Assembly: GCA_947258585.1 (NCBI GenBank)
Contig: CAMYIZ010000032.1
Coordinates: 1-51,058, forward strand
Length of the DNA: 51,058 nt
From: an uncultured Haliea sp.
Lineage (GTDB): Bacteria > Pseudomonadota > Gammaproteobacteria > Pseudomonadales > Halieaceae
Reading direction: 5' to 3'
Shown one piece after another: positions 11,228 to 20,403 of the stretch. A program made the position numbers and the translations under genes. Position 1 is the first letter of the stretch. Each line of letters starts with the position of its first letter. The notes beneath the pieces were generated by a model, which saw nothing but the letters and a program-made list of their open reading frames with translations, searched no databases and was not told where the DNA came from.

Positions 11228-12418
11228 TCAGCTCAGACGGGTGCGAAAATCCTCGTAGCTGAACTCACGCACCACTTCCAGTGCACCAGTAGCCGAGTTC
11301 CAGAGCGCGATGGCCGGTAGCCGGGTGCCGTTGAAGGTACTGGTCTTCACCATGGTGTAGTGGGCCATGTCCTTGAATACCAGGCGCTGGCCGATCTGCA
11401 GCGGCGCCGGGAAGCTGTAGTCGCCGATAACGTCCCCGGCGAGACAGGTCAGCCCACCGAGACGGTAGGTATGGGCCAGCTCTCCGGCCTCCCCCGCTCC
11501 CTGCAGTTCGGGCCGGTAGGGCATCTCCAGGGTATCGGGCATGTGGCAGGTGGCGGAGCAGTCGAGAATGGCCTGGTCCAGCGCATTCCAGGTCAAATCC
11601 AGCACCTCGGTAACCAGCACCCCGGTGCCAATCGCCACGGCCTCTCCCGGCTCCAGGTAGACCTGTACCTGGTGGCGGCTGGCGAAATCACGGATGCAGC
11701 TCACGAGGTCGTCGATCTGGTAGCCCGGGCGGGTAATGTGATGGCCGCCGCCAAAATTGACCCACTGCATCTGCGGCAGGAGGTCACCGAATTTGGCCTC
11801 CACTGCCTCCAGGGTGCGCTGAAGGGGCGGAAAATCATGCTCGCAAAGGGTGTGGAAATGCAGCCCGGTGATTCCTTCCAGGGTAGCGACATCCAGCTGT
11901 GAACGCGGAATACCCAACCGCGAACCCGGCGCGCAGGGGTCGTAGATGGGCACGTCGCCTTCGGAATGTTCCGGGTTGATCCGCAAGCCAAAACGCAGCG
12001 CCGGGCGCTCGCGCTGGGCTGCCAGGCACAGGGGCCGGAATCGGACCCACTGGGCACAGCTGTTGAACACCACGTGGTGAGCGATCTGCAGGATCTCGCG
12101 CAAGTCGGCCTCGTGGTAACCGGCCCCGAACACATGGACCTCGCCGCTCTCGTCCGTGCCGCGATAGTAGTCGTGCCCCAGCCGCGCCTCGTGCAGACCG
12201 CTGGCACAGCTACCGTTCAGGTAGCGTGCGGTCAGCTCCCCCAGGCGCCAGCAGGAAAACGCCTTCAGCGCCGCCAGCACCTTTGCCCCGCTGGCTTCGG
12301 CCACACCCTGCAGGATGGCCAGGTTGCGCTCCACCGCCACCTCGTCGACGACATAGCAGGGGGACGGCAGCCGCGCGAGGTCCAGGGTAGCAAAGTCCGT
12401 GAACTGGAAAATCTGCAC
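11228..12418 (-). CDS. nspC: Carboxynorspermidine/carboxyspermidine decarboxylase family (PLP, alanine racemase fold)
   Basis: PLP-dependent decarboxylase that removes the carboxyl group from a carboxylated polyamine (carboxyspermidine, carboxynorspermidine or carboxyaminopropylagmatine). Lys52 in LAALKAFSCW is the expected PLP lysine. WVNFGGGHHITRPGY is the family glycine-rich block, and LDCSATCHMPDTLEMPYRP and LAGDVIGDYSF are characteristic C-terminal motifs. The start is set at GTG 12418, one base after the upstream stop, with AGGA eight bases before it; the frame further upstream overlaps the preceding gene. The product is 396 residues. It is the third gene of the speA operon; substrate choice within the family cannot be read from the sequence. 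Confidence 0.88.
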   Translation of the reverse strand: MQIFQFTDFATLDLARLPSPCYVVDEVAVERNLAILQGVAEASGAKVLAALKAFSCWRLGELTARYLNGSCASGLHEARLGHDYYRGTDESGEVHVFGAGYHEADLREILQIAHHVVFNSCAQWVRFRPLCLAAQRERPALRFGLRINPEHSEGDVPIYDPCAPGSRLGIPRSQLDVATLEGITGLHFHTLCEHDFPPLQRTLEAVEAKFGDLLPQMQWVNFGGGHHITRPGYQIDDLVSCIRDFASRHQVQVYLEPGEAVAIGTGVLVTEVLDLTWNALDQAILDCSATCHMPDTLEMPYRPELQGAGEAGELAHTYRLGGLTCLAGDVIGDYSFPAPLQIGQRLVFKDMAHYTMVKTSTFNGTRLPAIALWNSATGALEVVREFSYEDFRTRLS

Positions 12419-12419
12419 G

Positions 12420-13640
12420 CTAGAGATCCTGGCCCTTGACCACATCGAGGCGGAAGGACGGGTCCAGCTCAATCACAGTCCAGGGCAGACCGTAGCTGTT
12501 CATGTCCGCCATGAAAGGGTCCGGGTCACGCTGCTCGACATTCCACACCCCGGGCTCACGCCAGTGCCCCTCGATGATCATCTTGGCGCCGATCACCGCC
12601 GGCACACCCGTGGTGTAGGAAATGGCCTGGGACTGCACCTCGCGGTAGCAGGCCTGATGGTCGCAGATGTTGTACAGGTACATCACCCGCTCCGCGCCGT
12701 CCTTGGTCCCGCGCACGATGCAACCGATGCAGGTCTTGCCCTTGGTGCGCGGCCCCAGCGTGGAAGGGTCGGGCAGCAATGACGCCAGGAACTGGATGGG
12801 CACGATCTTTTGCCCCTGGTAATCCACCGGCTCGATGCCGGTCATGCCCACATTGCGCAGCACTTCCAGGTGCTTCAGGTAGTTCTCCGAGAAGCTCATC
12901 CAGAACTGGGCGCGCTTGAGGCCGGGAAAGTGCTTGCTCAGGGATTCCAGTTCCTCGTGGTACATGCGGTAGATATTGTAGGCGCCGACATCCTCGGGGC
13001 AGTCGAAGCGCGCCTGCTTGGACATGGGCGGCGTGGTGACAAACTGGCCGCCCTCCCAGTGCCGGCACTCGGCGCTGACCTCGCGGATATTGATCTCCGG
13101 GTTGAAGTTGGTCGCGAAGGGATAGCCGTGGTCACCGCCGTTGACATCGATAATGTCGAGTTCGCTGATCTCGTCAAAGTAGTGTTTGGCAAGGTAGGCG
13201 GTGAAAATATTGGTGGCACCGGGATCGAAGCCGCTGCCGAGGACCGCGGTGAGGCCGGCATCGCGGAAGCGGTCCTGGTAGGCCCACTGCCAGTGATACT
13301 CGAACTTCGCCGTATCCGGCGGCTCGTAGTTGGCGGTATCGAGATAGTGCACACCAGCCGCCAGGCAGGCATCCATGATGGTGAGATCCTGGTACGGCAG
13401 CGCCACATTGATCACCAGCAGCGGCTGCTCGGCCTGGAGCAGGGCGGTGAGCTCGGCCACATTGTCCGCATCCACCTGTGCGGTGCGAATAGGCCTTGAG
13501 ACCTGGGCGGCGATAGCCTTGCACTTGGACTCTGTACGGCTGGCCAGCAGGATATCGGTAAACACTTCCGGCAGTTGCGCACACTTGTGCGCCACCACGG
13601 CGCCGACGCCGCCGGCGCCGATGATTATCACTTTGGACAT
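12420..13640 (-). CDS. Carboxynorspermidine/carboxyspermidine synthase (saccharopine dehydrogenase-like)
   Basis: NADPH-dependent enzyme of the saccharopine dehydrogenase superfamily that reductively condenses an amine with aspartate beta-semialdehyde. The Rossmann motif VIIIGAGGVGAVVAHKC starts at residue 4. LGSGFDPGATNIFTAY and DINGGDHGYPF-like blocks (IIDVNGGDHGYPFATN) mark the polyamine subfamily rather than lysine catabolism. The start is ATG 13640 and the product is 406 residues; the longer frame runs into speA. It lies 28 bases after speA and directly before the decarboxylase gene. The amine acceptor could be putrescine, 1,3-diaminopropane or agmatine; the neighbouring arginine decarboxylase favours agmatine or agmatine-derived putrescine. 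Confidence 0.88.
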   Translation of the reverse strand: MSKVIIIGAGGVGAVVAHKCAQLPEVFTDILLASRTESKCKAIAAQVSRPIRTAQVDADNVAELTALLQAEQPLLVINVALPYQDLTIMDACLAAGVHYLDTANYEPPDTAKFEYHWQWAYQDRFRDAGLTAVLGSGFDPGATNIFTAYLAKHYFDEISELDIIDVNGGDHGYPFATNFNPEINIREVSAECRHWEGGQFVTTPPMSKQARFDCPEDVGAYNIYRMYHEELESLSKHFPGLKRAQFWMSFSENYLKHLEVLRNVGMTGIEPVDYQGQKIVPIQFLASLLPDPSTLGPRTKGKTCIGCIVRGTKDGAERVMYLYNICDHQACYREVQSQAISYTTGVPAVIGAKMIIEGHWREPGVWNVEQRDPDPFMADMNSYGLPWTVIELDPSFRLDVVKGQDL

Positions 13641-13668
13641 GTCTGTGCTCCTTTTTTTGCTGCCTGGA

Positions 13669-15594
13669 TCAGTGGTGCTCGAAGTAGGTGTAGCCCTGCA
13701 GGCTGTCGCGGAAGGCGCGCAGGATCTCCTGGCGCTCGGCGACCGAGATGCGGCCGCTGCGCACCGCGCTCTCCGCCACCTGGCGGAACTGTTCCTGCAT
13801 GTGCTTGGGCTCATATTCGACGTAGCTCAGCACGTCGGCGATGCTGTCGCCGTGGAATTCACGGGCGAAGTCGAAGCTGCCGTCCGGATTGACCGTCACG
13901 TTGACCACATTGGTGTCGCCGAACAGGTTGTGCAGGTCCCCCAGGGTCTCCTGATAGGCCCCGACGAGGAACACGCCCAGGGTATAGTCTTCATCGTCCT
14001 GCAGGCCGTGCAGCGGCAGGGTGCAGCTGGTGCCCGCGGGCAGGGAGAACTTGTCGATTTTGCCGTCGCAGTCGCAGGTAAGATCCGCGAGCATGCCGCG
14101 GCGGGTCGGCTCTTCCTGCAGGCGGTGCAGGGGCATGATCGGGAACAGCTGGTCGATGGCCCAGATATCCGGCAGCGACTGGAACAGGCTGAAATTGCAG
14201 TAGTAGATGTCCGACAGCAGTTCCGGCAGGTTCTCCAGCTCCGGCGGCACCCGCGTCAGTTCCGGCAGCAGGACCACAATACGCTGCAGCACCGCCAGGC
14301 AGATGTCGTCCGCCAGGGCCCGCTCGCGCAGGCTGGCCTGCCCGTGCTGGAACATTTCCCGAATCTCGTCGCGATAGAACAGCGCGTCGTTGTAGCACTC
14401 CTGGAAATTCTCCCGCCCCACCACATCCAGCACTTCGCGGATATTGCGCAGGGTGTCGTTGCAATCTTCCGGCAGCACCTCGGGAATATGCTGGGGCTCC
14501 CAGGTTCTCACATCCAGGACGTTGAACAGCAGCAGCGAGGAGTAGGCCACCGTGGCACGGCCGGACTCGGACACAATCACCGGATGCGAAATATCCAGGG
14601 GGTCGAAAATCTCGCGGATACTCTCGACGATGTTGACGCAGTACTCCTCCAGCTGGTAGTTCATGGAGTGCGTGCTGTTGGTGCGCGCACCCTCGTAGTC
14701 CACCGCCAGGCCACCGCCGAGATCGAGATAGCCCATCGCTGCGCCCTCTTCGACCAGCCCGGCGTAGAAGCGGCACGCTTCCAGCACGCCGTTGCGGACG
14801 TTGCGAATATTGGGCACCTGCGAGCCGAGGTGGCAGTGCAGCATTTGCAGGCAATGCAGCATACCCGCCTCGCGCAGCTCATCGACTACGGTGATCAGCG
14901 CGGGCGTGGAAAGCCCGAAAATGGAGCGGTCACCGCTGTCCTGGCTCCAGTGGCCATCCACTTTCACCGAGCTTTTCATGCGCACACCGATCAGGGGTTC
15001 GACCCCGAGCACCCTGCTGCGCTCAATGATCATCCGCAGTTCGCTGACAGACTCCAGCACGAAGAAGCAGGGGTAGCCCATGCGCCGGGCATACAGGCCC
15101 AGGTCGATAAACTCGGAATCCTTGTAGCCGTTACAGACCACCAGGCTCTCGGTATCACGCAGCTGGCTCAGGGCAATCGTGAGCTCGGCCTTGCTGCCGG
15201 CTTCAAAGCCGTGGTGAAAGCGGGTGCCATAATTGGCGATCTCCTCGATCACATGGCACTGCTGGTTGACCTTGATCGGGAACACGCCGCGGTACACATT
15301 GTTGTAGCCACCACTGGCGATGGCGTCGGCAAAGGCTTCGTTGAGTACCTTGATGCGATGGTCCAGCACGTTGCGGATCCGCAGCACAGCCGGCATCTCC
15401 AGATTGCGCGCACGCATCCCGGCGACGATGTCCATCAAGGATACGCTGACCTCACCGTCACCGGGGTTGACCGTCACCTGGGCATGGCCATTGTCTGCGA
15501 TGCTGTAGTAGCCTGCGCCCCAGGCGTTGATGCCGTAGAGCTCGGCGCTGTCGGCAACGCTCCAGCCCTCTGTGGGCTGCGCTGAATCTGTCAT
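13669..15594 (-). CDS. speA: Biosynthetic arginine decarboxylase
   Basis: PLP enzyme converting arginine to agmatine, the first step of the arginine route to polyamines. The 641-residue product is close to E. coli SpeA in length. It opens with the family segment YGINAWGAGYYSIADNG; GVFPIKVNQQ carries the PLP lysine (Lys108). LHCHLGSQ and LDLGGGLAVDYEG are glycine-rich cofactor blocks, and the C-terminal half has VSESGRATVA. The start is ATG 15594, with GGGAGGA a few bases upstream; the in-frame extension to 15729 is not family-like. It heads the three-gene operon ending in the carboxypolyamine decarboxylase. No agmatinase or agmatine deiminase gene is in the window. Confidence 0.96.
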   Translation of the reverse strand: MTDSAQPTEGWSVADSAELYGINAWGAGYYSIADNGHAQVTVNPGDGEVSVSLMDIVAGMRARNLEMPAVLRIRNVLDHRIKVLNEAFADAIASGGYNNVYRGVFPIKVNQQCHVIEEIANYGTRFHHGFEAGSKAELTIALSQLRDTESLVVCNGYKDSEFIDLGLYARRMGYPCFFVLESVSELRMIIERSRVLGVEPLIGVRMKSSVKVDGHWSQDSGDRSIFGLSTPALITVVDELREAGMLHCLQMLHCHLGSQVPNIRNVRNGVLEACRFYAGLVEEGAAMGYLDLGGGLAVDYEGARTNSTHSMNYQLEEYCVNIVESIREIFDPLDISHPVIVSESGRATVAYSSLLLFNVLDVRTWEPQHIPEVLPEDCNDTLRNIREVLDVVGRENFQECYNDALFYRDEIREMFQHGQASLRERALADDICLAVLQRIVVLLPELTRVPPELENLPELLSDIYYCNFSLFQSLPDIWAIDQLFPIMPLHRLQEEPTRRGMLADLTCDCDGKIDKFSLPAGTSCTLPLHGLQDDEDYTLGVFLVGAYQETLGDLHNLFGDTNVVNVTVNPDGSFDFAREFHGDSIADVLSYVEYEPKHMQEQFRQVAESAVRSGRISVAERQEILRAFRDSLQGYTYFEHH

Positions 15595-15633
15595 GCTCCT
15601 CCCGTGTTCGATGTCTGATGCACGCGGAGGTCT

Positions 15634-15810: not shown

Positions 15811-15840
15811 ATGACAGGCACCGGCCACAGGCACTATATT
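15811..15840 (+). promoter_or_regulatory. Promoter of the GNAT-C39 / DUF1704 operon
   Basis: ATGACA (15811-15816, 5 of 6 with TTGACA) is followed after 18 bp by TATATT (15835-15840, 5 of 6 with TATAAT). Transcription would begin near 15847, leaving a leader of about 20 bases before the ATG at 15867. Confidence 0.55.
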
Positions 15841-15866: not shown

Positions 15867-17069
15867 ATGTCTGCCCAGCACGCCAAACAGTTGGCCCACA
15901 CGACCGCCGAGCCGCGCCCGGAAATCAGCATTGAGCGGGCGCTGCCCGCCGACCTGGACGCCCTGCTGGACATCGAAGCGGCCTGTTTCAGCAGCGACCG
16001 CCTGTCCCGGCGCAGCTTCAAGCGCTGGCTGCGCCGCTCTGACTGTGTCTTTCTGGTGGCGCGGGCCGGGGAGAGACTCGCTGGCTACAGTCTGGTGCTG
16101 CTGCGCCAGGGTACGCGCCTGGCACGCCTCTATTCCCTGGCCGTGTCCCCGGATTTCCAGGGTCAGGGACTGGCGAGGCGCCTGCTGCAACAGGTAGAGC
16201 GTGATACCCGCGCCACCGGCGCCCTGTACCTGCGTCTGGAAGTGGCCAGCACCAACGAAGCCGCGATTGCGCTGTACCAGCAGCTGGGGTATACCCAGTT
16301 CGGCCTCTATCGCGATTATTACGAGGACCACGGCGACGCCCTGCGCATGGAGAAGTGCATCCGCCCCTACGAACCCGGCGGCGACTCCCATTCCATTCCC
16401 TGGCTGGCCCAGACCACGCCCTTCACCTGCGGCCCCGCGTCGCTGATGATGGCCATGGCCGGACTCGACAGCAGCTACGAGCCCACACCGCTGGAGGAGA
16501 TCGAGATCTGGCGCGAGGCCACCACCATCTTCATGACCTCGGGCCACGGCGGCTGCCATCCCCTGGGACTGGCGCTGGCCGCCAATGCACGCGGTTTCCG
16601 CAGCGAAGTCTGGGTCAATACCGTCGGTCCGCTGTTCCTGGAAGGTGTGCGGGACGAAAACAAGAAGCGGGTCATGAACCTGGTCCACGACGCCTTTGTG
16701 GTCCAATGCGACCGCAACAAGATCCCCGTCCACTACCGGGATGTCGACCAGCAGCAGCTGGTGGAGTTGTTCGACGCAGGCGCCAATATCCTGATCCTGA
16801 TCTCCAGCTATCGACTCGACAGCAAGAAGGCACCGCACTGGGTGGTGCTGTCAGGCTACGATGACAGCTGCCTGTATGTCCACGACCCGGAGCTGGATGA
16901 CCTCAGTACTCCGACTGCGGCCCGCGATGCCAACAAGGCGCCGCTGGATTGCCAGCACCTGCCCATTGCCCGCGCCGACTTTGCCGCCATGAGCCGCTTT
17001 GGCGGCAGTCGCCTGCGAGCAGTCGTGGTGGTGCAGCCGAAAAAGCGCCGGCGCAAGGCAAAGCCGTGA
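15867..17069 (+). CDS. GNAT acetyltransferase / C39-like peptidase fusion protein
   Basis: The 400-residue product joins two domains. Residues about 20-165 are a RimI-like GNAT domain: the acetyl-CoA motif is FQGQGLARRL (97-106), followed by LEVASTNEAAIALYQQLGY. Residues about 175-390 are a papain-like C39-type domain with QTTPFTCGPASL (Gln182, Cys188), PHWVVLSGYDD (His324) and VHDPE (Asp340), so a Cys-His-Asp triad appears intact. There is no signal peptide, membrane segment or ABC transporter, so this is not a bacteriocin exporter peptidase. The C-terminus is very basic (KKRRRKAKP). The stop overlaps the DUF1704 start by four bases. Substrate unknown; homologues are usually annotated by this same domain fusion. 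Confidence 0.9.
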   Translation: MSAQHAKQLAHTTAEPRPEISIERALPADLDALLDIEAACFSSDRLSRRSFKRWLRRSDCVFLVARAGERLAGYSLVLLRQGTRLARLYSLAVSPDFQGQGLARRLLQQVERDTRATGALYLRLEVASTNEAAIALYQQLGYTQFGLYRDYYEDHGDALRMEKCIRPYEPGGDSHSIPWLAQTTPFTCGPASLMMAMAGLDSSYEPTPLEEIEIWREATTIFMTSGHGGCHPLGLALAANARGFRSEVWVNTVGPLFLEGVRDENKKRVMNLVHDAFVVQCDRNKIPVHYRDVDQQQLVELFDAGANILILISSYRLDSKKAPHWVVLSGYDDSCLYVHDPELDDLSTPTAARDANKAPLDCQHLPIARADFAAMSRFGGSRLRAVVVVQPKKRRRKAKP

Positions 17070-18349
17070 GCGCCGACCCCCACTATCTCAGCCTGGTGCG
17101 GGAACTGTCCGAGCGCATGGTGGCGGCCCAGCGCCCGATTCGCATTCTCGACGCGATCAAGTGGAACGGCGCGGTGCGCAGGGACTTCTTTGCCCGCGGC
17201 TGCCGCGAGCTGCCGCGGATCGACCGCGACTACTACCGGGAGCAGAATCCCCTGGATTTTGACCCGGCCTTGAAACGCGCGGAATTCCAGGACATCGAGC
17301 GTGACATCGCCCGCAAGCTGGGGCAACTCAACCCCCTGGCCCAGATCATGCGCCGCATGTGCCGGGAGTACCGGAGCGTGGTACAGATGCTCGAGGCCCG
17401 CGGCGAACCCGATTTCGGCACAATCTCCGTGGACCTGTACGGATCCGCGTCCGACGTCTTCCACGCCGGCGATCCCACCCTGGCGGACCTTGGCACGGTA
17501 ATGGAAGACACCCTCACCAACCTCCTGCAGAACCGCTCCATGCAGGAAGCGGCCAAGGACATCGACGCCGGCCAGGCAGTGGAAATGCTCAATGAACGCC
17601 TGCTGCGCGTGTTCCCGGACGCCGGCATCCGGGTCTTGCTCAACGACCAGATGACGGCAGATGCCGCCGCCGGTTCCGACTACCTGAAGATCCGCAGCGA
17701 CGCCCGTTTCAACCGTCTCGACATCGATGTCCTGGAAGTTCACGAAGGCTGGGTACATCTCGGGACCACCCTGAACGGCAGTGCCCAGCCGGCCTGCACC
17801 TTCCTCGGCAAGGGTACCCCGGCCGCCACCACTACCCAGGAGGGCCTCGCGGTACTCACCGAGATTCTGACCCTGCGCTCCAGTCCCTCGCGCCTGTTCC
17901 GGCTGATCAACCGGGTCCGGGCGGTAACCCTGGCGGAGGACGGCGCCAGTTTCGTTGACGTGTTCCAGTATCTGCGCGAGCACGGCATGGGCGAGGATGA
18001 CGCCTGGAGCATCGCCATGCGGGTATTCCGCGGCAGTACCCCGGACGGCAAGCCCTTTACCAAGGACCTCGCCTACATGCGCGGTTTTGTCCAGACCTAC
18101 AATTTTCTCCGTCTCGCGATGAGCGAGGGGCAACTCGACAGCCTGCCGGTGCTGTTCTGCGGCAAGATCACCCTGGAGGACATCCAGACCTGGCGTATGC
18201 TGATTGACGAGGGCGTCGTGGAGGCCCCGCGCTTCGTGCCCCCGCACTTCGCGGACCTGCAGGGCCTGGCGACCTGGATGAGCTTCTCGCGTTTTATCGC
18301 CTCGCTGAATTTCGACCAGCTGCAGGCGGACTACGGCGCCCTGCTCTAG
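17066..18349 (+). CDS. DUF1704 'QEGLA motif' protein, putative HExxxH metallopeptidase
   Basis: The 427-residue product belongs to DUF1704, often called flavohemoglobin expression-modulating QEGLA-motif protein. It contains HEGWVH (226-231), an HExxxH zinc site, and TQEGLAVLTE, whose Glu259 is the likely third ligand. The eukaryotic branch of this family includes the tubulin tyrosine carboxypeptidase MATCAP, which uses the same motif, so a peptidase role is a reasonable inference. The start is GTG 17066 inside the GTGA overlap with the GNAT-C39 gene; this gives MSADPHYLSLV, and the upstream frame is only a shadow. Elsewhere I recall such genes next to RimK-like ATP-grasp ligases; none is present here. 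Confidence 0.87.
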   Translation: MSADPHYLSLVRELSERMVAAQRPIRILDAIKWNGAVRRDFFARGCRELPRIDRDYYREQNPLDFDPALKRAEFQDIERDIARKLGQLNPLAQIMRRMCREYRSVVQMLEARGEPDFGTISVDLYGSASDVFHAGDPTLADLGTVMEDTLTNLLQNRSMQEAAKDIDAGQAVEMLNERLLRVFPDAGIRVLLNDQMTADAAAGSDYLKIRSDARFNRLDIDVLEVHEGWVHLGTTLNGSAQPACTFLGKGTPAATTTQEGLAVLTEILTLRSSPSRLFRLINRVRAVTLAEDGASFVDVFQYLREHGMGEDDAWSIAMRVFRGSTPDGKPFTKDLAYMRGFVQTYNFLRLAMSEGQLDSLPVLFCGKITLEDIQTWRMLIDEGVVEAPRFVPPHFADLQGLATWMSFSRFIASLNFDQLQADYGALL

Positions 18350-18360
18350 GGCTGGCCTGC

Positions 18361-20403
18361 TCAGCCCCGGACCAACCGGCTCGCCCCCGCTGCGCGCCCC
18401 GGCATTTGCTGCAACAATCTGCGCAAGCCTTTCAGCTGCGCTCTGGCGCCATCGTTCGCGCCGCTGCTGGCATAGGCCAGCTCCTCAAAGCCGGCGGTGA
18501 ACTCCTCCGCCCATTGGCCCAGCGCCGGGTCGGTGCCCGCCACCCGCCGGCAAAAATCCCGCGGGCCCTCACCGCGACCCCGCGTCAGGCCACGTCGCGC
18601 CAGCCGGGCACAGAAGGCCAGGTAGAGTCGTTCCGCGGGGTCCGGCGGGCGCCGCCTGTGGCGCCCCAGCAGCAGCCACGCCACGGGTAGCAGCACCAGC
18701 GCGCCGCTGGCGAGAACGATGATGACGAAGGTTCGCGCGCGCACTGTGCCAAACAGGTCCTGCAGCAAACGATACTGCTGGTCGCTATTGAATCCCACCA
18801 CCCAGCTCTGCCAGCGGTAAGTCCATGCGTCATAGCGCAGCCTGAGCATATTGACCCAGTTCACACCCCGGTAGCGCAACGGCGACAGCGGCGAGTTGGC
18901 CAGGAAACTGCCCTCCCCGGCCACTGCCTGTTCCAGCCCCAGCTCGATGCGTTCCGGGGATACAGCGGCGGTGGGATCCACCCGCACCCAACCCCGCCCT
19001 TCCAGCCACACTTCAGCCCAGGCATGAGCGTCGAACTGGTGCACGATCACGGTCCGGTTGAGGGGATTGATTTCCCCGCCCTGGTAGCCCGCCACGACCC
19101 GCGCCGGAACTCCCGCGGCGCGCATCATCAGCGTGAACGCGAAGGCATAGTGTTCACAGAAGCCGCGGCGGGTTTCGAACAGGAACTGGTCCATCGGCTC
19201 TGGCGCCGACAGCAGCGTCGGCTGCAGGGTGTAGACAAAGTTTTCCCGATTGAAATACGCCAGGACCGCATCGACAAAGGCGGCGTCGGTGGGGCTTTCC
19301 GCGCGGATGCCCAGGGCCAGCTCGCGGCTGCGGGGGTTGCTGGCGGGCGGCAACGCCAGCTCCGTGCGCCGGCGCCAGTCTGACAGCTCGGTTTCCAGCG
19401 GCGTTTCAGGCCAGCTGTTGACGCTGTAGCGCAGCTGGTCCTCGACCTCCACCGGAGAGTAGAGACGAAAGTCCGGAGTGGCCAGCACACCCGATTGCGG
19501 GGAGCGCGCGTAGCGCAAGCTGTAGAGCCAGTTCTGCTGGGTGGGCAGCATCAGCACCGAATAGGACAATTCGGGGCCTGACGGCTCCAGTCTGGGCGCC
19601 CGCAGCTCCGCCGCGGGCAGCTCGTGATAGCGCAGGCTGCGCCAGGTACCCGCATCCAGCACGCTGAACACCAGCCCCCGCCAATACAGCTCCGAGCGCG
19701 GGGGAATATCGCCGGCAAACCGCACCCGGAAAGCGACCTCATCCGACTGGCTGAGACTGGAGACATCCCCGGGCTTCATGAAATCGCTGACCCCGGTGCG
19801 GGCGGCGTGGCTTTGCACCGGCACGGTCCACAGCGGCCCGATGCGGGGAAAGAGAAAGAACAGCACCAGCATGAGCGGAAATGCCTGGGCCAGCATCAAC
19901 GCCGGCAGGCGCAGGGTATCGACCCGGAACCGGTGCTCTCCAGGGCGGTGCAGCGCAACCAGGGCCGTGGTGACCAGCAACAGCGTGAACAGGGAATACA
20001 GGACCAGCAACAGGTCCTGGGTGAATAGAAACGCGGTCACGCAAATGAAATAGCCAAGGAAGATAACCACGTAGGCATCCTTGCGCCTGATCAGCTCCAG
20101 CAGCTTGAGAGCAAAGGCGGTGAGCAACAGGGCCACCGTCGGCTCAAGCCCCAGCAGGTTACCGTAACTGAAGAACACCGCGGCGAAACCGGCACCAATC
20201 AGGGCGATGCGGACCCAGCGTCCGGGAAAGGACACCCGGCCCTGATAGACCAGCAGGCGCCAGACTGCGGTCAGCAGATACACCAGCACCACCCAGACCG
20301 GCAGCCGCCCCAGGTGCGGCAACAGCAGGGCGAACTGGCTGAGGATGATCCACACCAGTGCGTTGCGCGGAATCAGGCTGGCGGCGCCGAAAGGAACACT
20401 CAC
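18361..20403 (-). CDS. tgpA: TgpA-type membrane transglutaminase-like protease with DUF4129-like tail
   Basis: The 680-residue inner-membrane protein has about six hydrophobic helices in residues 10-185 (e.g. LLLTAFALKLLELI, FLGYFICVTAFLF), then a periplasmic transglutaminase-like domain. Cys416 (RRGFCEHYAFAF), His460 (FDAHAWAEVW) and Asp476 (VRVDPTAA) form the expected triad. One more membrane helix (VIIVLASGALVLLPVAWLLL) and a cytosolic tail follow. In P. aeruginosa the homologue TgpA is reported essential, with an unknown substrate. Its start overlaps the DUF58 stop by four bases (ATGA), so it closes the MoxR-DUF58-TgpA operon. Confidence 0.92.
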   Translation of the reverse strand: MSVPFGAASLIPRNALVWIILSQFALLLPHLGRLPVWVVLVYLLTAVWRLLVYQGRVSFPGRWVRIALIGAGFAAVFFSYGNLLGLEPTVALLLTAFALKLLELIRRKDAYVVIFLGYFICVTAFLFTQDLLLVLYSLFTLLLVTTALVALHRPGEHRFRVDTLRLPALMLAQAFPLMLVLFFLFPRIGPLWTVPVQSHAARTGVSDFMKPGDVSSLSQSDEVAFRVRFAGDIPPRSELYWRGLVFSVLDAGTWRSLRYHELPAAELRAPRLEPSGPELSYSVLMLPTQQNWLYSLRYARSPQSGVLATPDFRLYSPVEVEDQLRYSVNSWPETPLETELSDWRRRTELALPPASNPRSRELALGIRAESPTDAAFVDAVLAYFNRENFVYTLQPTLLSAPEPMDQFLFETRRGFCEHYAFAFTLMMRAAGVPARVVAGYQGGEINPLNRTVIVHQFDAHAWAEVWLEGRGWVRVDPTAAVSPERIELGLEQAVAGEGSFLANSPLSPLRYRGVNWVNMLRLRYDAWTYRWQSWVVGFNSDQQYRLLQDLFGTVRARTFVIIVLASGALVLLPVAWLLLGRHRRRPPDPAERLYLAFCARLARRGLTRGRGEGPRDFCRRVAGTDPALGQWAEEFTAGFEELAYASSGANDGARAQLKGLRRLLQQMPGRAAGASRLVRG

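What the first reader, a model, noticed from the sequence alone, without database searches (positions are those of the whole stretch)
15867..18349. Two-gene GNAT/C39-peptidase fusion plus DUF1704 metallopeptidase system of unknown function
Seen: the genes overlap by GTGA and share one promoter. The first protein has an intact GNAT acetyl-CoA motif and a Cys188-His324-Asp340 papain-like triad with Gln182. The second has HExxxH (226-231) and Glu259 in QEGLA. Known: DUF1704 includes the eukaryotic tubulin tyrosine carboxypeptidase MATCAP; the bacterial members have no settled role. Inference: an acetyltransferase, a cysteine peptidase and a zinc carboxypeptidase-like enzyme made together suggest a cytosolic peptide or protein-tail modification and trimming pathway. 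The RimK-like ATP-grasp ligase I expect from memory beside such genes is missing, so this may be a reduced version or the ligase is elsewhere.
Basis: partly seen in the sequence, partly recalled or inferred. Interest (0 to 1): 0.72.

Follow-up and report, generated by a model that had tools for sequence, protein, structure and literature searches.

The report
Split peptide-ligation and trimming system
Two overlapping bacterial genes encode a two-domain enzyme and a relative of a human tubulin-trimming enzyme; the joining enzyme thought to work with them lies elsewhere in the same genome, so this looks like a scattered peptide-building and trimming pathway whose product is still unknown.

Summary
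Window 15867-17069 encodes a GNAT acetyltransferase fused to a papain/C39-like domain (DUF3335); 17066-18349 encodes a MATCAP/DUF1704 metallopeptidase; they overlap by GTGA. The named catalytic residues are invariant in the relatives aligned.

The "missing" ligase is present: an RLAN-RimK ATP-grasp ligase on another contig. It tracks GNAT-C39 closely: all 51 GNAT-C39 genomes among 145 of the order have it (39 within 3 kb), as do 78 of 80 named GNAT-C39 genomes (58 within 5 kb).

The metallopeptidase beside the pair varies: DUF2817 (M14-like), DUF1704 or an M42-like enzyme. DUF1704 is the looser partner; many copies stand alone. A divergent DUF1704 clade, fused to an N-formylglutamate-amidohydrolase domain, adjoins a glutathione-synthetase-like ATP-grasp gene.

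Best reading: ATP-grasp ligation, N-acyl capping and C-terminal trimming of an unidentified glutamyl-type peptide or protein tail. The GNAT-C39/ligase link probably belongs to amidoligase pathways predicted in 2009 (paper not available). New here: the split layout, the varying peptidase, the counted partnership. New variant of a known kind.

The parts
15811..15840 (+). promoter-like site (ATGACA-18-TATATT) upstream of the pair
   Evidence: 1 found, 0.4 expected by chance in the region; weak
15867..17069 (+). GNAT acetyltransferase / papain-like C39 (DUF3335) fusion gene, 400 aa
15957..16292 (+). GNAT domain (res 31-142); best PDB hits are protein N-alpha-acetyltransferases
16395..17033 (+). 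DUF3335 papain-like domain (res 177-389) with Q182, C188 (16428-16430), H324 (16836-16838), D340 (16884-16886)
17066..17069 (+). 4-nt start/stop overlap GTGA (translational coupling inferred)
   Evidence: the junctions of two relatives, L111 and L119, read ATGA
17066..18349 (+). DUF1704 / MATCAP-family metallopeptidase gene, 427 aa
17741..17758 (+). HExxxH metal-binding motif HEGWVH (res 226-231)
   Evidence: aligned to HEIGTH of human KIAA0895L 7z5g
17837..17851 (+). QEGLA motif (res 258-262), E259 = third metal ligand by alignment to EEGLA of 7z5g

Best explanation
The two genes are the capping and trimming arm of a cytosolic, non-ribosomal amide-ligation pathway whose ligase (RLAN + RimK-like ATP-grasp, same genome, contig C17) is encoded elsewhere. 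Proposed steps: (1) the ligase activates a free carboxylate of an acceptor peptide, protein tail or acyl-amino acid with ATP and joins an amino acid, most likely glutamate; (2) the GNAT domain acetylates the alpha-amine of acceptor or product; (3) the fused papain-like Cys188-His324-Asp340 site cleaves or transfers at an internal or gamma-glutamyl-type amide; (4) the DUF1704 enzyme, a metal-dependent carboxypeptidase of the MATCAP family, takes residues off the C-terminus, which makes the ligation reversible. Shown: gene content, invariant active-site residues, signs of purifying selection, the ligase/GNAT-C39 partnership, different metallopeptidase kinds in the neighbouring slot, and a second ATP-grasp/DUF1704 pairing. 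Inferred: all four reactions, glutamate as donor, order of steps. I lean to a small N-acylated glutamyl-type peptide over a protein tail, because the second DUF1704 context pairs an N-formylglutamate-amidohydrolase domain with a glutathione-synthetase-like ligase.
For: Ligase in the own genome: RLAN E 4.4e-33 with RimK/ATP-grasp in one ORF. Co-occurrence: GNAT-C39 in 51 of 145 genomes of the order; RLAN in all 51 of these and in 6 of the other 94, Fisher p 7.6e-33; matches within 3 kb in 39 of 51 (distances counted by eye). Named set: RLAN within 5 kb of GNAT-C39 in 58 of 80, and elsewhere in the genome in 20 of the 22 others. DUF1704 within 5 kb of GNAT-C39 in 8 of the 20 order genomes that have both, six of them with matches 129-165 bp apart; the overlap state lies in two separate clades of the DUF1704 tree. 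DUF2817 directly next to GNAT-C39 in 29 of 80 loci. DUF2817 keeps H78xxE81, N133-R134, H229, E297 invariant in 25 sequences (I recognise the M14 pattern from memory) with weak M14 similarity (E 0.003, below cut-off; MpaA E 0.05). Ligase profile: best solved relatives are RimK-type S6-glutamate ligases. Second context: a GshB-like ATP-grasp gene at the 5' side of the FGase-DUF1704 fusion in 6 of 6 long-form loci examined (5 of the 7 long forms of the order plus Photobacterium); FGase, DUF1704 and glutathione synthetase annotated side by side in Mesorhizobium. In PMC10308900 (passages and section 19 read) a QEGLA gene and a GshB gene with the preceding locus tag are induced 27.5- and 38.4-fold at low salt.
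Against: No activity of any of these bacterial proteins is known to me or was found. In this genome the ligase is unlinked (each gene lies over 15 kb inside its contig), so the partnership rests on other genomes. DUF1704 is loosely tied: 12 of 32 DUF1704 genomes lack RLAN and GNAT-C39, and 31 of 51 GNAT-C39 genomes lack DUF1704; even in the window's own family two genomes (G040, G134) have ligase and GNAT-C39 without DUF1704. 18 of 51 GNAT-C39 genomes have none of the three metallopeptidases, and the M42-like link is not significant (p 0.07). Of 12 further DUF1704 loci fetched, 8 (L201, L203-L209) show no ligase beside the gene by BLAST with two ligase queries, and none of the flanking genes scanned in them, one to two per locus, is a ligase. 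RLAN occurs without GNAT-C39 in 6 of 57 genomes. Glutamate as donor is weak: in Pfam the D-Ala-D-Ala-ligase model fits the ATP-grasp part better than RimK, and NCBIfam LysX and RimK models stay below their cut-offs. The low-salt data concern the other DUF1704 context. Shared ancestry inflates the Fisher p, and the 80 named loci are the best 80 of 568, hence biased to near relatives.
Confidence: 0.5

Rival explanations
1. An osmolyte-type small peptide pathway that works like the NAGGN system: acetyltransferase + ATP-grasp ligase make an N-acetylated dipeptide-like solute, and the peptidases degrade it when salt falls.
For: Same logic of parts: NAGGN (recalled) uses a GNAT-ATP-grasp synthetase and an M42 peptidase, and an M42-like gene sits within 5 kb of GNAT-C39 in 5 of 80 loci and beside the ligase in 3 order genomes (by eye). 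Many hosts belong to marine genera (names, habitat recalled). A DUF1704 gene and a GshB gene are strongly induced at low salt in Photobacterium. Polyamine genes flank the operon in three Halieaceae-type genomes.
Against: The window GNAT matches the NAGGN synthetase model with 26 bits against a cut-off of 569; the ligase does not hit it. The M42-like protein tested hits no NCBIfam model at E 0.001. 22 of the 80 named hosts carry Methylo- names, methanotrophs that are largely not marine (recalled). The amidotransferase of NAGGN was not looked for.
Confidence: 0.2
2. A protein-tail modification cycle: ligase adds residues to the C-terminus of a cellular protein, DUF1704 or M14-like DUF2817 removes them, GNAT and C39 act on the N-terminus or processing of the same protein.
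For: GNAT is nearest to protein N-alpha-acetyltransferases (ARD1/Naa10, RimI); ligase nearest in the PDB to RimK, which modifies ribosomal protein S6; DUF1704 homologous to human TMCP1/MATCAP, which trims and deglutamylates tubulin tails (PMC10499314, passages).
Against: No candidate target gene recurs: beyond the labelled genes, only two families reach 5 of 37 genus-level groups within 4 kb, a DnaX and a histidine kinase. The alignment to human MATCAP covers mainly the catalytic half. Patchy distribution (51 of 145 genomes) would be unusual for modification of a core protein.
Confidence: 0.2
3. A graspetide/microviridin-like RiPP cluster (ATP-grasp + GNAT + C39).
For: Same enzyme classes as microviridin clusters (recalled).
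Against: No short ORF recurs widely beside the block: among 1100 free small ORFs in the 80 loci the widest cluster spans 5 loci and looks to me like a dispersed repeat; no transporter is among the families that recur in 5 or more genus-level groups.
Confidence: 0.03
4. Chance neighbours: GNAT-C39 and DUF1704 are merely adjacent and functionally unrelated.
For: DUF1704 is often far from GNAT-C39, has no ligase beside it in 8 of 12 further loci, and in 4 of 21 main-clade genomes occurs without GNAT-C39.
Against: Overlapping genes in two separate DUF1704 clades, main-clade DUF1704 enriched in GNAT-C39 genomes (17 of 21, p 4.7e-6; main clade chosen by me from score and identity), and the pair kept in four Halieaceae-type genomes (window, L111, L118, L119).
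Confidence: 0.07

Closest known systems
RLAN-RimK ATP-grasp / GNAT-papain amidoligase neighbourhoods (Iyer et al. 2009, Mol Biosyst 5:1636; not held, content recalled; cited in PMC10318531 for GNAT-fused DUF3335)
   Same: same ligase and GNAT-C39 families, same partnership
   Different: ligase on another contig; DUF1704 in the peptidase slot; partnership now counted
MATCAP/TMCP tubulin carboxypeptidases (KIAA0895L, PDB 7z5g/7z6s)
   Same: PF08014, HExxxH + EEG/QEG, further shared N, Q, R-G, K-D, Y and G-K residues in the alignment
   Different: bacterial; alignment mainly over the catalytic half; substrate unknown
FGase-DUF1704 + glutathione-synthetase-like gene pairs (Photobacterium, Mesorhizobium and others)
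   Same: DUF1704 paired with an ATP-grasp ligase
   Different: other ligase family, FGase in place of GNAT-C39, divergent DUF1704 clade
NAGGN osmoprotectant operon (recalled)
   Same: acetyltransferase + ATP-grasp + peptidase
   Different: domain fusions and families differ; model cut-offs not met
Glutathionylspermidine synthetase/amidase (recalled)
   Same: ATP-grasp ligase paired with a papain-like amidase
   Different: fused in one protein there; different domain families

Membership tests
MATCAP / DUF1704 (PF08014, TIGR02421) | profile score above curated cut-off | tested here: met
   447.3 bits vs 27; 359.4 vs 338.65
MATCAP / DUF1704 (PF08014, TIGR02421) | HExxxH plus third Glu ligand, conserved in homologues and aligned with the solved enzyme | tested here: met
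   E 9.4e-14 to 7z5g with the profile
MATCAP / DUF1704 (PF08014, TIGR02421) | metal ligands meet in 3D | tested here: inconclusive
MATCAP / DUF1704 (PF08014, TIGR02421) | tubulin or C-terminal carboxypeptidase activity | not testable with these tools
DUF3335 / papain-like C39 | profile match and Cys-His-Asp triad with oxyanion Gln | tested here: met
   290.4 bits vs 25; invariant residues
GNAT acetyltransferase | profile match and acetyl-CoA loop | tested here: met
   71.2 bits vs 20.7; QGQGLA loop (res 98-103), G99 invariant in 44, G99 and G101 at 90% or more in 68
RLAN-RimK / GNAT-C39 amidoligase pathway | RLAN ATP-grasp ligase in the genome | tested here: met
RLAN-RimK / GNAT-C39 amidoligase pathway | ligase adjacent to GNAT-C39 | tested here: not met
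   contigs C32 and C17; 12 of 51 order genomes are also not seen linked, some perhaps by contig breaks
RLAN-RimK / GNAT-C39 amidoligase pathway | amide bond formation | not testable with these tools
   -
NAGGN system | GNAT-ATP-grasp synthetase TIGR03103 | tested here: not met
   26 bits vs 569 for the window GNAT; the ligase does not hit it
Graspetide RiPP | conserved precursor peptide next to the ligase | tested here: not met
   (80 loci around GNAT-C39); the own-genome ligase locus was not scanned for small ORFs
Anti-phage defence | match to a PADLOC model | tested here: not met
   0 hits for 3 proteins

The most novel reading that the evidence does not exclude
The system is a bacterial counterpart of the tubulin-tail cycle: an ATP-grasp ligase (the fold of TTL/TTLL, recalled) adds C-terminal residues, and carboxypeptidases of the same kinds that act on tubulin (MATCAP-family DUF1704, or M14-like DUF2817 as CCPs are M14, recalled) remove them, on a still unknown bacterial protein. 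Both peptidase kinds in one slot would mean that the eukaryotic tail-editing toolkit was already assembled as a functional unit in bacteria.
Probability: 0.1. Interest if true: 0.85.

Novelty: new variant of a known kind. Interest (0 to 1): 0.5.

Why it matters
I know of no assigned function for bacterial MATCAP relatives, and name searches of the held library showed none (titles and abstracts of the listings only, apart from the papers named). A counted partner set (ligase, GNAT-C39, varying metallopeptidase) turns that open question into a few defined experiments, and two separate ligase pairings suggest that DUF1704 often serves to undo ATP-grasp-made bonds. If the substrate is a protein tail, the origin of tubulin tail editing becomes testable.

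Tried and rejected
Reduced system without ligase: rejected. RiPP cluster: no widely recurring small ORF. Defence or phage gene: no PADLOC hit, no phage record with GNAT-C39, no DUF1704 relative confirmed in viral contigs; PHROGs hits are acetyltransferases for the GNAT part and an S6-modification-like ligase for RLAN-RimK. 2OG-Fe(II) oxygenase as a fixed partner: it overlaps the ligase gene in this genome and lies beside it in G077 and a Haliea genome and near GNAT-C39 in G006, but it matches in 84 of 145 genomes, and by eye only 5 of these (G000, G006, G064, G077, G078) have it within about 3 kb of a ligase or GNAT-C39 match; so only a local association. DUF155 neighbour: 6 of 80 loci, not followed. 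M42-like peptidase: adjacent in few genomes, enrichment not significant. Own-genome FGase (C75) and DUF2817 (C52) exist but are not linked to the pair. Counts rest on BLAST-labelled ORFs; loci cut by contig ends were kept in the denominators. In one search one of 80 loci (L118) was dropped because a spurious ORF masked the gene; one search repeated the count on all 80. Rows left out of alignments: 5 of 32 DUF1704 genomes in A2; near-copies and odd lengths in A1 and A3.
Full report
WHAT IS THERE. Protein 1 is a GNAT domain followed by a DUF3335 papain/C39-like domain; protein 2 is a full-length MATCAP/DUF1704 protein. They overlap by GTGA. The triad and Gln of the papain-like domain are invariant in 44 sequences from the order and in 68 sequences, the window's plus 67 of the 80 named loci. 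The HExxxH, the QEG Glu and further residues are invariant in 27 DUF1704 proteins down to about 25% identity to the window's. dN/dS is 0.10-0.27 against three close relatives. The nearest named relatives found are Halieaceae (which may leave out the window's own species).

THE LIGASE IS NOT MISSING. A search of the whole genome finds one RLAN domain (E 4.4e-33) in the same ORF as a RimK-like ATP-grasp domain, on contig C17, with a 2OG-Fe(II) oxygenase gene overlapping its 3' end. A stronger RimK match of ordinary RimK length is separate, on C61. GNAT-C39 and the ligase each lie over 15 kb inside their contigs, so they are not neighbours.

CO-OCCURRENCE. The same 145 genomes of the order were searched for three families: DUF3335 occurs in 51, RLAN in 57, DUF1704 in 32. 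All 51 DUF3335 genomes have RLAN (p 7.6e-33; relatedness is not corrected for). The two lie within 3 kb in 39 of 51; the other 12 include likely contig breaks. Against a strict link, 6 RLAN genomes lack DUF3335. In a second set of 80 named GNAT-C39 loci (best 80 kept of 568 confirmed; species may overlap with the first set), RLAN lies within 5 kb in 58. Of the 22 others, 20 have RLAN elsewhere in the genome; the two misses are Methylococcaceae MAGs. The split layout of the window is therefore an ordinary minority state.

THE METALLOPEPTIDASE SLOT. Next to GNAT-C39 stands DUF2817 in 29 of 80 loci. In the order it is adjacent in 11 of the 14 genomes that hold both a strong DUF2817 match (20 genomes, E under 1e-30) and GNAT-C39 (by eye). 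DUF1704 lies within 5 kb in 8 of the 20 order genomes that hold both and in 2 of the 80 named loci. An M42-like peptidase is near in 5 of 80. DUF2817 has weak similarity to M14/AstE enzymes and invariant H78, E81, N133, R134, H229, E297, which I recognise as the M14 pattern from memory. The kinds are not strictly exclusive: G095 and G006 have both DUF2817 and DUF1704 in the neighbourhood, 7 GNAT-C39 genomes carry both somewhere, and 18 of 51 have none of the three.

DUF1704 ON ITS OWN. The tree of 30 DUF1704 proteins puts the GNAT-C39-overlapping ones in two separate clades, one Halieaceae and one in family f24 (with a ligase-linked relative from G033), among unlinked relatives; two gains, or one ancestral linkage with several losses, are both possible. 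Within the window's family, G040 and G134 have ligase and GNAT-C39 but no DUF1704, and G106 has none of the three. A divergent clade holds fusions of an N-formylglutamate-amidohydrolase domain with DUF1704 (Pfam on L199; five others by full-length BLAST), with a GshB-like ATP-grasp gene at the 5' side in 6 of 6 loci checked; in Mesorhizobium the three are annotated side by side as separate genes. Against a general rule, 8 of the 12 further DUF1704 loci fetched (L201, L203-L209) show no ligase beside the gene, and their scanned neighbours are a mixed lot: glycosyltransferase, metallo-beta-lactamase, chromate or phosphate transporters, MoxR-type ATPase, ThiF-family protein, M48 peptidase, aldehyde dehydrogenase, HemY and others, two without a Pfam hit. 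L202 has a RimK gene about 2.8 kb from DUF1704, with an SDF transporter gene and another ORF in that stretch. So DUF1704 repeatedly, but not always, sits with an ATP-grasp ligase.

SUBSTRATE HINTS. The GNAT part is nearest to protein N-alpha-acetyltransferases; the ligase to RimK-type ligases in the PDB, though in Pfam a D-Ala-D-Ala-ligase model scores better than RimK and NCBIfam models stay below cut-off; DUF1704 to human KIAA0895L, 7z5g, E 9.4e-14 with the profile. PMC10499314 (passages only) reports that this human family trims tubulin C-termini, removes glutamates, has HExxxH with a third ligand in an EEG motif, and is inactive as E281A. PMC10308900 (passages and section 19) lists a QEGLA gene (27.5-fold) and a GshB gene with the preceding locus tag (38.4-fold) as induced at 1% versus 3% NaCl; a Photobacterium locus read here has this gene pair (L212). 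This concerns the second context, and supports an ionic or osmotic link only loosely.

MECHANISM. I favour ligation by the ATP-grasp enzyme, alpha-amine capping by GNAT, internal cutting or transfer by the papain-like domain, and C-terminal removal by DUF1704. What is shown is the partner set and active-site conservation; every reaction is inferred.

KNOWN OR NEW. PMC10318531 (passages) notes that DUF3335 is often fused to GNAT and cites Iyer 2009, whose title names ATP-grasp amidoligases; that paper is not held. My recollection is that it predicted such neighbourhoods. Searches for DUF1704, QEGLA motif, DUF3335, DUF2817 and the NCBI product names listed no functional study of the bacterial proteins in the held library (for KIAA0895L with bacterial homologues, 20 of 52 listed); I judged by listings apart from the three papers named, and subscription papers are mostly not held. 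Hence 'new variant of a known kind'.

DUF1704 loci without a ligase neighbour corrected from seven to eight of 12 and their neighbours scanned; wording on G99, on the oxygenase counts and on the ligase profile mended; two contrary results (family members without DUF1704; Pfam ranking of the ligase) added. The first rival went from 0.22 to 0.2 only so that the odds do not pass 1; the others are unchanged.

Noticed in passing
window 11228-15597 (-): Carboxynorspermidine decarboxylase (nspC, above cut-off), a carboxynorspermidine-synthase-like gene (406 bits, cut-off 800) and biosynthetic arginine decarboxylase lie divergently upstream of GNAT-C39; the order is kept in G077 (L111) and Haliea L118. 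In PMC10308900 carboxynorspermidine genes are also induced at low salt.
   Followed up: partly
L010:7269-7940 (+), G000 contig C17: A 2OG-Fe(II) oxygenase gene overlaps the 3' end of the RLAN ligase gene; also beside the ligase in G077 and a Haliea genome (L235), and near GNAT-C39 in G006.
   Followed up: partly
L104:3241-4065 (-); L110:8350-9219 (+): A DUF155 (RMND1/Sif2-like) gene lies beside GNAT-C39 in these two order genomes (Pfam on L104, L110 by BLAST) and within 5 kb in 6 of 80 named loci.
   Followed up: no
G000 contig C52 (L210:4518-5669): The own genome also has a DUF2817 (M14-like) gene, unlinked to the pair.
   Followed up: partly
window 18361-20403 (-): A long ORF downstream, convergent with the pair, that I take from its sequence for a membrane transglutaminase-like protein; no NCBIfam hit at 1e-20. 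A relative lies further off in L118.
   Followed up: no
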